Source: Bdellovibrionales bacterium (GTDB lineage Bacteria > Bdellovibrionota > Bdellovibrionia > Bdellovibrionales > JAKFYE01). From it: a DNA stretch of 64,000 nt. Below are positions 12,242 to 28,167 of the stretch, one piece after another (positions within the stretch are counted from its first letter, which is position 1; each line of letters starts with the position of its first letter). Under the pieces are notes generated by a model that was not told the DNA's origin, made no database searches, and saw nothing but the letters and a program-made list of their open reading frames with translations. The stretch covers positions 1-64,000 of the forward strand of contig JAKFYE010000035.1 in the NCBI GenBank assembly GCA_021731045.1. Reading direction: 5' to 3'. The position numbers and the translations under genes were made by a program.

Positions 12242-12256
12242 AAGGAGGAATTTATC
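12242..12256 (+). promoter_or_regulatory. infC: Ribosome-binding site and ATC start codon of infC
   Basis: AAGGAGG at 12242-12248 is followed after five bases by ATC (12254-12256), in frame with the whole IF3 reading frame. No ATG, GTG or TTG exists in that frame near the Shine-Dalgarno; the first standard codon is a TTG at 12320, inside the conserved IF3 domain. Confidence 0.8.
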
Positions 12257-12874
12257 TCTCAGCCAACAAAAGAAAAAGGATTACGAGTCAATTTACAAAT
12301 CCGCGCGCCACAAATTCGTTTGATCGATGAGGAAGGCAAAATGGTCGGAGTGATGGCTCCCCAAGAAGCTCTTCGTATAGCAGAAGGTAAAGGACTCGAC
12401 TTGATCGAGATCGCACCTGAAGCTAAGCCACCAACGTGTAAAATCATGGATTTTGGCAAATACAAATACGAACAAAAAAAGAAGGCGCAGGAAGCTCGTA
12501 AAAACCAAACCGTCATTGTGGTTAAAGAGATTCAACTTCGCCCTCGCACAGAACAGCACGATCTTGACGTAAAACTTAGGGCCGCGCGTCGATTCCTAGA
12601 GGACGGGTCTAAAGCTAAATTCAATATGCGTTTTAAAGGTCGGGAAATGGCGCACCAAGAGCTTGGAATGAACATGCTTTTAAAAGTCATCGAGCTTTTT
12701 AAAGAGATTGCGATCGTCGAAGTTCCACCTAAGCGCGAAGGTAAGCAGATCTTTTTACAGCTGGCGCCGGAGCCTGTTTGGTTAAAGGCTATCCAAAAAG
12801 AGCAGAAAGAAAAGAAGAGCAGTCAAACTCAGATGACAACCGAAGAGGCCGAACAAGTCGCAGCCGCAGAATAA
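12254..12874 (+). CDS. infC: Translation initiation factor IF-3 with predicted ATC start
   Basis: A 206-residue IF3 when read from ATC at 12254. The N-domain contains GLRVNLQIRAPQIRLIDEEG and the linker segment PPTCKIMDFGKYKYEQ, followed by the C-domain (VKEIQLRPRTEQHDLDVKL and FNMRFKGREMAHQELG). Starting at TTG 12320 would delete about 22 conserved N-terminal residues and would lack a ribosome-binding site. IF3 rejects non-standard start codons, and E. coli infC (AUU) is autoregulated this way; an AUC start has been described for the Myxococcus IF3 gene dsg. The C-terminal acidic tail is family-typical. It lies between thrS and rpmI. Confidence 0.92.
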   Translation: MSQPTKEKGLRVNLQIRAPQIRLIDEEGKMVGVMAPQEALRIAEGKGLDLIEIAPEAKPPTCKIMDFGKYKYEQKKKAQEARKNQTVIVVKEIQLRPRTEQHDLDVKLRAARRFLEDGSKAKFNMRFKGREMAHQELGMNMLLKVIELFKEIAIVEVPPKREGKQIFLQLAPEPVWLKAIQKEQKEKKSSQTQMTTEEAEQVAAAE

Positions 12875-26227: not shown

Positions 26228-26875
26228 TTACTCTTTAATTATAATTTTATCAGGTAGCTCATTTGAATCGTTCGGTGTTCGAGGAAATTCTTTCGTGACG
26301 ACTTCAGCACTTTTTTGAATTGCATTTACGATTCCCTGGGTGAGATCTTGCGCATGAATTCCGTTTATAAGATCGGTGATCACATCTGCCCAAATGGATT
26401 TATCGAATTTATCAGAAATGGATTTGTCTGCCAGAACCACGGCTTTTCGCTCTTGTAATGAAATAAATAATAGAATTCCTGTTTTAGAGAGCGTTGAGTG
26501 AATCTGTGCTGAGTAAAATTCAGTTAAGGCGCGACGTTCAACGCAAATGAACTCTTCTTTGTCGCTGGTGAGTAAACGTTTAATTGTATGTGAGCGGGAA
26601 AGTCCGAATGCTAAACCTAAAGAGAGAGACGAAAAAAGTAAAAAAACCATATGACTCGTTAGAGGATAAAAAATATCGAGAGACATTAAGTGAAAGAGTT
26701 CGTTTGAAATTAACAAAAAGAATAAAGCTAAAATTGGAAACACGTGTGCGCTACCCGTGGAACTTAAAACCACCATAGGGATGATTTCCGCAGACGTTTT
26801 ATTTTCGGCAGCTTCAATCGCTTTTTTTATTCTTTCTTGAGAGCTCGGAAGATTTAGATGCTTGAGTGCTTTCAT
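26228..26875 (-). CDS. TPM-domain membrane protein
   Basis: A 215-residue protein related to the second TPM (YgcG) proteins found beside LemA. The N-terminal segment (SSQERIKKAIEAAENKTSAEIIPMVV) is the conserved TPM start, two membrane segments lie at about 48-100, and the rest of the TPM fold follows (LSKTGILLFISLQERKAVVLADKSI). It begins right after the end of the first TPM gene, so lemA, ygcG-like and this gene form an operon. TPM proteins have been linked to photosystem II repair in plants and to membrane stress in bacteria; the bacterial role is not settled. Confidence 0.8.
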   Translation of the reverse strand: MKALKHLNLPSSQERIKKAIEAAENKTSAEIIPMVVLSSTGSAHVFPILALFFLLISNELFHLMSLDIFYPLTSHMVFLLFSSLSLGLAFGLSRSHTIKRLLTSDKEEFICVERRALTEFYSAQIHSTLSKTGILLFISLQERKAVVLADKSISDKFDKSIWADVITDLINGIHAQDLTQGIVNAIQKSAEVVTKEFPRTPNDSNELPDKIIIKE

Positions 26876-27595
26876 TTACCAACTCCCCGAAGAGCCGCCG
26901 CCGCTAAAACCGCCGCCGCCGCCAGACCAACCACCCCCACCGCCGCCACCAAAACCTCCAAACCCGCCGCCGCTATGCCAACCGTGACGTGAGTGTCGAC
27001 CAAAACCGCGAAAAATAACAAAGAGAATAAAAATAAAAAGGTAGAGAATCAGTTTTAGGATTTTAAAACCGCCGCTGGAAGTTCTGCTTTCTTGGACTTG
27101 CGATGTCTCTTCTAAATTATTATTTTTTAAAAACTCAGGGTCGACGCGTTCCAAAATACCATAAACGCCTGTGCCGATAGCTTCATCGTAGAGACCACGT
27201 TTCATAAGTGGGGTCATTCTGTCGATGATACGTCGAGCGTAGGCATCGGGAAGGTCGCCTTCTAAACCTTGGCCCACTTCGATGCGCATTTTACGATCCT
27301 TCATCGCGAGTAAAAGTAAAACGCCATTGTCTTTTTCTTTTGTTCCTAGCTTCCAACTGTCGACAACTTTGATCGAGTATTCTTCGATCACCGAACCTTC
27401 AAGGCTAGGGATCGTCAGCACAGTTATTTGTGCGCGGCCGCGCGACTGTTCATCTCTCAATATAGTATTAAGCTGCTCGACTGTAGATTGAGATAATATG
27501 CGCGCATAATCGTTAACCGGTGCGCGAAGTGGAGGAATTTCTCCACGTCCCGCAATACTAAAAAAGAAAATTAAACTGAGTACTAGAGGCCTCAG
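26876..27595 (-). CDS. YgcG-like TPM-domain protein with predicted CTG start
   Basis: A 239-residue protein when read from CTG at 27595. That reading gives a signal peptide (MRPLVLSLIFFFSIAG), then PPLRAPVNDYARILS and the complete TPM domain (NGVLLLLAMKDRKMRIEVGQGLEG), one C-terminal membrane helix and a Gly/Trp/Ser-rich tail (GGGGGGGWSGGGGGFSGGG). No ATG, GTG or TTG exists in frame before the TTG at 27460, and starting there would remove the signal peptide and about 30 residues of the conserved domain. AGAGG lies seven bases before the CTG, which overlaps the lemA stop (CTGA). The tail resembles other YgcG proteins; the function is not established. Confidence 0.8.
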   Translation of the reverse strand: MRPLVLSLIFFFSIAGRGEIPPLRAPVNDYARILSQSTVEQLNTILRDEQSRGRAQITVLTIPSLEGSVIEEYSIKVVDSWKLGTKEKDNGVLLLLAMKDRKMRIEVGQGLEGDLPDAYARRIIDRMTPLMKRGLYDEAIGTGVYGILERVDPEFLKNNNLEETSQVQESRTSSGGFKILKLILYLFIFILFVIFRGFGRHSRHGWHSGGGFGGFGGGGGGGWSGGGGGFSGGGSSGSW

Positions 27596-28167
27596 AGATT
27601 AACCTCTGGTGCTTTTTCTAAACTTTGAGCGCCTTCGACGGTCCACTGAGGCATTTTTTCGTAATGAAAAAACAATGTGTTCGTTAAGTTGTACGGAAAC
27701 ACACTGACATAATTATTAAAATCTTTAATCGAATCAATGTATCTCTGACGAGCAACTGTAATACGATTTTCTGTACCTTCTAGTTGTGCCTGAAGGTCTC
27801 GAAAGTTTTGATCGGCTTTCAAATTAGGATAATTTTCAGCGACGACCATCAATCGTCCTAAAGCCTGGGTCAACTCACCTTGGGCCGACGCAAACTTTTC
27901 GATTTGTTGGGGAGAAAGTTTGCTCGCATCAATTTCCATTGATGTGGCTTTTGCTCGAGCATTCGTGACGGCCTCAAGAGTTTCTTTTTCGTGCTTGGCA
28001 TAACCTTTCACTACGGTGACAAGATTAGGAATGAGATCGGCACGACGTTTATACTGATTCGTAATTTCAGCTAGAGCCGCATCCACATTGTTTTTACTTT
28101 GTGGAATAGATTGAACTCCGCACGCAGTCAGTTGGGTGAGTAGAGCGATCATCAATAGAAATTTCAT
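27592..28167 (-). CDS. lemA: LemA family protein
   Basis: A 191-residue lipoprotein-like LemA. A lipobox-type signal (LLTQLTAC, Cys16) precedes the family motifs VDAALAEITNQYKRRADLIPNLV and LMVVAENYPNLKADQNFRDLQAQLEGTE, and the FNNYVSVFPYNL segment near the end. LemA proteins are extended helical bundles exposed outside the membrane. The stop codon overlaps the predicted CTG start of the next gene, a TPM protein; lemA and TPM genes occur together in many bacteria, which suggests a shared envelope role. Confidence 0.92.
   Translation of the reverse strand: MKFLLMIALLTQLTACGVQSIPQSKNNVDAALAEITNQYKRRADLIPNLVTVVKGYAKHEKETLEAVTNARAKATSMEIDASKLSPQQIEKFASAQGELTQALGRLMVVAENYPNLKADQNFRDLQAQLEGTENRITVARQRYIDSIKDFNNYVSVFPYNLTNTLFFHYEKMPQWTVEGAQSLEKAPEVNL

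What the first reader, a model, noticed from the sequence alone, without database searches (positions are those of the whole stretch)
27458..27600. YgcG-like gene starts at CTG inside the lemA stop codon
Seen: the conserved TPM domain and a textbook signal peptide continue in frame upstream of the first standard start (TTG 27460) to a CTG at 27595-27593 that overlaps the lemA TGA (CTGA). AGAGG stands seven bases before it. No ATG, GTG or TTG exists in between and the frame is closed by a TAA two codons before the CTG. Inferred: translation couples from lemA through a CTG start, possibly setting a low TPM:LemA ratio. Known: CTG starts are rare but real in bacteria.
Basis: partly seen in the sequence, partly recalled or inferred. 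Interest (0 to 1): 0.62.

Follow-up and report, generated by a model that had tools for sequence, protein, structure and literature searches.

The report
TPM gene with a CTG start
A secreted-protein gene that follows lemA in an uncultured bacterium most likely starts at the rare codon CTG, sharing two bases with the stop codon of lemA; this is a rare but known kind of start, one base away from the ordinary arrangements seen in its relatives.

Summary
On the minus strand the TPM (YgcG-like) frame is open from CTG 27595-27593, which shares TG with the lemA TGA (27594-27592). AGAGG (27607-27603) lies seven bases upstream, the frame is closed by TAA at 27601-27599, and no ATG, GTG or TTG occurs before TTG 27460. 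That TTG would remove the signal peptide and two residues invariant in all 95 relatives compared (P21, D29). Of 96 lemA-TPM junctions in the same order, this is the only one without a standard start between lemA and the TPM domain. Six relatives start at exactly this position (five TTGA, one ATGA). About 31 start three bases on, where this genome has AGG, one base from ATG. Overlap starts go with GAG, hence the Shine-Dalgarno-like GAGGT, in the lemA tail (Fisher p=0.002 with this locus, 0.009 without). The initiator tRNA and anti-SD are normal. Best explanation: a genuine CTG start served by termination-reinitiation from lemA. A local hairpin pairs the SD with the CTG and is the strongest of the 96 junctions, but it is only weakly significant. 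A low TPM:LemA ratio is untested. Consensus error cannot be excluded without reads. Rare but known kind; modest interest.

The parts
27592..28167 (-). lemA (191 aa, LemA family PF04011); its C-terminal EKAPEVNL tail carries the SD-like sequence
26876..27595 (-). TPM-domain (YgcG-like) gene read from CTG, 239 aa: signal peptide, TPM domain, transmembrane helix, Gly-rich tail
27593..27595 (-). CTG, proposed start codon, sharing TG with the lemA TGA (27594-27592)
27602..27607 (-). AGAGGT, Shine-Dalgarno-like (GAGGT pairs with the anti-SD ACCTC), seven bases between AGAGG and CTG
27599..27601 (-). in-frame TAA that closes the TPM frame two codons before the CTG
27593..27608 (-). small hairpin CAGAG-GTTAAT-CTCTG pairing the SD with the start codon; strongest local fold of 96 junctions, weak against shuffles
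27590..27592 (-). AGG codon, at the +2 position where about 31 of 96 relatives have their ATG or GTG; one base from ATG
27458..27460 (-). TTG, first standard in-frame start; rejected because it removes the signal peptide and invariant residues P21 and D29
26228..26875 (-). second TPM-domain gene, ATG directly after the TAA of the first

Best explanation
The TPM/YgcG-like gene is intact and is translated from CTG 27595 by ribosomes that have just finished lemA. The terminating ribosome stands on the 4-nt overlap CTGA, is held by the SD-like GAGGT in the last codons of lemA, and restarts with ordinary fMet-tRNA at the CTG. The CTG arose by one base change, either from a TTG at the same place (TTGA in five relatives) or by loss of an ATG three bases downstream (TGATG becoming TGAGG), the CTG then taking over. 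Shown: the reading frame, homology, absence of standard starts, position relative to relatives, SD, normal initiator tRNA and anti-SD. Inferred: actual initiation at CTG, reinitiation rather than de novo entry, and a reduced yield.
For: The TPM domain starts at residue 27 from the CTG. P21 and D29 are identical in all 95 aligned relatives and V27 in 96%, all upstream of TTG 27460. The N-terminal length from CTG to the domain is 26 residues, within the relatives' range (10th-90th percentile 25.5-40), with a hydrophobic core as in relatives. 96 of 100 TPM loci in the order have lemA directly upstream; six relatives start at exactly the same overlap (L012, L013, L039, L052 and L105 TTGA; L028 ATGA). 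GAG at the lemA tail Glu codon occurs in 4 of 6 overlap starts against 4 of 55 others (Fisher p=0.0018; without this locus 3 of 5, p=0.009). NTGA overlaps are normal in this genome. The genome has a canonical initiator tRNA with three G-C pairs (L152) and an anti-SD GGATCACCTCCT. Bona fide CTG starts are documented (FIB rep, PMC11983097).
Against: CTG starts are very rare (0.024% of annotated starts) and weak (0.86% of AUG in E. coli; Hecht et al. as quoted in PMC11497404). No relative shares the CTG, and the family has only this one genome held. The assembly is a fragmentary 83.5%-complete genome without reads, so one wrong base (27595, or 27591 for ATG at +2) would abolish the case. No expression data exist.
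Confidence: 0.78

Rival explanations
1. The consensus is wrong, or this strain is atypical, at one base; the real start is standard (ATG/GTG/TTG at 27595, or ATG at 27592-27590 where the window has AGG).
For: A start at +2 is the commonest arrangement in the order (about 31 of 96) and AGG is one base from ATG; the genome is a 47-contig, 83.5%-complete assembly.
Against: A consensus error would have to fall on one of very few bases; at a typical consensus error rate of about 1e-5 (my estimate) that is less likely than the published 2.4e-4 frequency of CTG starts. No standard start exists in any frame within 50 bases upstream and 39 downstream of the CTG, so an indel error does not explain it. 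The GAG-GTT SD fits a start at 27595.
Confidence: 0.1
2. The gene has lost its start and is a recent pseudogene or is translated only at trace level.
For: No standard start; a second TPM gene follows directly.
Against: 240 codons open with an intact TPM domain, TM helix and Gly-rich tail, and similarity over the full length. A CTG with a correctly spaced SD at the homologous position would be a coincidence.
Confidence: 0.06
3. Translation starts at another in-frame near-cognate (ATT 27538 at residue 20, or ATT 27571/27556), giving a protein without a normal signal peptide.
For: ATT codons exist in frame; GGAG lies two bases before ATT 27538.
Against: The spacing is wrong, the signal peptide would be lost though relatives have one.
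Confidence: 0.03
4. The TTG at 27460 is the start, as automatic annotation would call it, giving a cytoplasmic truncated protein.
For: It is the first standard start.
Against: It removes the signal peptide and the first 20 residues of the TPM domain including invariant D29.
Confidence: 0.02

Closest known systems
4-nt stop-start overlaps (ATGA) and termination-reinitiation in bacteria and archaea (PMC6728339)
   Same: Start codon shares two bases with the upstream TGA, with an SD motif inside the upstream gene.
   Different: The start is CTG instead of ATG/GTG/TTG.
CTG start of FIB plasmid rep (PMC11983097)
   Same: A CTG start with a good SD, often annotated at a downstream GTG instead, keeping expression low.
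   Different: FIB rep was proven by N-terminal analysis and mutation; here it is inferred. The passages read do not describe it as overlapping an upstream stop.
sigR GTC start repressed by IF3 in Streptomyces (PMC5472188)
   Same: A non-canonical start in a coupled gene pair, where the weak start fixes the ratio of the two proteins.
   Different: GTC, not CTG, and it is the upstream gene of its pair; ratio control was shown experimentally there and is only a guess here.

Membership tests
LemA-TPM gene pair | LemA-family gene directly upstream of a TPM-domain gene | tested here: met
   PF04011 and PF04536 well above cut-off; 96 of 100 TPM loci in the order have the pair
YgcG-like TPM proteins | signal peptide, TPM domain, TM helix, Gly-rich tail | tested here: met
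   Pfam match and sequence; signal peptide judged by hydropathy and comparison with relatives, no dedicated predictor run
Overlap (NTGA) coupled gene pairs | start codon overlapping the upstream stop by 4 nt, with SD inside the upstream gene | tested here: met
Overlap (NTGA) coupled gene pairs | downstream translation depends on upstream translation | not testable with these tools
   needs reporter mutants
Genes with CTG start codon | initiation with fMet at CTG | not testable with these tools
   needs N-terminal peptides or ribosome profiling
Genes with CTG start codon | no standard start compatible with the conserved protein | tested here: met
Genes with CTG start codon | CTG conserved in relatives (supporting, not strictly defining) | tested here: not met
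   No other junction of 96 depends on CTG; the sample holds no genome closer than another family

The most novel reading that the evidence does not exclude
The CTG, the SD-start hairpin and the overlap together form a tuned switch: TPM protein is made only behind lemA translation and in a way that depends on IF3 activity, holding it well below LemA, much as GTC does for sigR.
Probability: 0.12. Interest if true: 0.45.

Novelty: new member of a known kind. Interest (0 to 1): 0.27.

Why it matters
Annotation pipelines that accept only ATG, GTG and TTG would cut this protein at TTG 27460 and lose its export signal and part of its domain. It gives a clean natural case, with about 95 related junctions for comparison, for asking whether reinitiation at a stop-start overlap tolerates CTG better than de novo initiation does.

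Tried and rejected
A search for the same species elsewhere: none in viral contigs, genome contigs gave only distant relatives, and no other genome of the family is held. Recoding or an unusual initiator tRNA: rejected; initiator tRNA and anti-SD are canonical. My first initiator pattern found nothing because it was one base too long. Indel error in the T6 run: rejected, no standard start in any frame nearby. Hairpin as a conserved element: not supported beyond a short complementarity built into the Glu (GAA) and Phe (TTC) codons of the lemA tail; shuffle z is only -1.3 at 45 nt and -0.3 at 75 nt. In-frame TGA reported for G001: it lies upstream of that gene's ATG, not inside it. A first junction script did not orient the minus-strand loci and was replaced. 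Hairpin coordinates in notebook entry 2 are one base off; those in this report are right.

Full report
What is there. On the minus strand lemA (28167-27592) ends ...GCA CCA GAG GTT AAT CTC TGA. The next gene, a TPM-domain protein of the YgcG type, is open in the frame that reads CTG AGG CCT CTA ... from 27595, so CTG and the lemA TGA share TG (CTGA). AGAGG lies seven bases upstream, the frame is closed by TAA two codons before the CTG, and no ATG, GTG or TTG occurs before TTG 27460.

Why the frame must extend upstream of TTG 27460. The TPM domain (PF04536, E 5e-38) begins at residue 27 counted from the CTG. In an alignment with 95 relatives P21 and D29 are invariant, V27 is 96% and L23, P26 and L46 are about 85% conserved. 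A start at TTG 27460 would begin at residue 46 and lose nearly all of these and the signal peptide. The peptide from CTG, (M)RPLVLSLIFFFSIAGRG-EIPP, has a normal length (26 residues to the domain; relatives' median 30, 10th-90th percentile 25.5-40) and a normal hydrophobic core; its n-region has a single Arg and its cleavage site is Gly-rich, so it is acceptable rather than textbook.

Comparison with relatives. The window lies in a 2.58-Mb, 47-contig, 83.5%-complete genome, the only held genome of its family. Of 141 genomes of the order, 100 have a match; 100 TPM loci were read at their starts, 96 with lemA directly upstream. This is the only junction with no ATG, GTG or TTG between lemA and the domain. 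Starts cluster around the lemA stop: about 31 lie at +2 (TAATG, TGATG, TAGTG), and six at -1, exactly the place of the CTG (TTGA in L012, L013, L039, L052, L105; ATGA in L028; L052 also has ATG at +2). The CTG is one base from TTG, and the following AGG is one base from the ATG seen at +2 in TTC-TGA-TG junctions such as L027, L068, L085 and L095. Either route makes the CTG a one-step derivative. In a LemA+TPM tree the eleven-member clade holding this locus (support 0.87) has varied starts, including TTG at -1 (L012) and ATG or GTG at +2, so the ancestral state is not resolved.

Initiation signals. The genome has a canonical initiator tRNA (L152, anticodon stem GGG/CCC) and the standard anti-SD GGATCACCTCCT. 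The GAGGT before the CTG is made by the Glu-Val codons of the conserved LemA tail APEV(K/N)(F/L). Where that residue is Glu, GAG is used in 4 of 6 overlap starts and 4 of 55 others (p=0.0018; 0.009 leaving out this locus), which suggests the lemA tail is tuned to serve the overlap start; relatedness was not corrected for. A 464-kb sample of the genome gives 15 candidate NTGA overlaps: 12 ATGA and one each of GTGA, TTGA and CTGA (crude gene calling, and the TTGA case may start further on).

Hairpin. CAGAG-GTTAAT-CTCTG pairs the SD with the start codon. At 27 nt it is the most stable of the 96 junctions (-10.2 against a mean of -2.1 kcal/mol), but in a 45-nt stretch 16 of 200 shuffles fold as well. 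It would make de novo initiation harder and leave opening of the site to ribosomes translating lemA. This is suggestive only.

Mechanism. Termination-reinitiation at stop-start overlaps is widespread and has been tested in E. coli and Haloferax (PMC6728339). CUG supports only 0.86% of AUG expression in E. coli and is 0.024% of annotated starts (Hecht et al., quoted in PMC11497404), and only one of 2,468 ancestral UUG starts switched to CUG in a large reconstruction (PMC5622118). Still, FIB rep uses CTG, shown by mutation (PMC11983097). I therefore take the CTG as a real, weak, lemA-coupled start. A designed low TPM:LemA ratio, as sigR/rsrA has through an IF3-repressed GTC (PMC5472188), is possible but untested; drift to a tolerated weak start is simpler.

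Uncertainty. No reads are available, so a single wrong base cannot be excluded; an indel error is unlikely, since no standard start exists in any frame nearby.

Noticed in passing
window 12254-12874 (+): infC (IF3) has no ATG/GTG/TTG at its start; the likely start is ATC 12254 with AGGAGG five bases upstream. Many relatives also lack a standard start there and show ATT, ATC or ATA, in line with the known IF3 autoregulation by a rare start codon.
   Followed up: partly
lemA tails of 96 relatives; in the window 27602-27607 (-): GAG is rare at the tail Glu codon when the TPM start does not overlap the stop (4 of 55) compared with the rest of lemA (407 GAG to 911 GAA), as if an SD-like GAGGT were avoided there.
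   Followed up: partly
L124 4145-4873 (+): ORF with strong coding signal for 83 codons before its first standard start; from the sequence it looks like an RHS-repeat C-terminal fragment, possibly a broken or displaced tail.
   Followed up: no
window 26875-26878 (-): The second TPM gene begins with ATG immediately after the TAA of the first, with GGGGAG upstream, so the three genes may be coupled in series.
   Followed up: no
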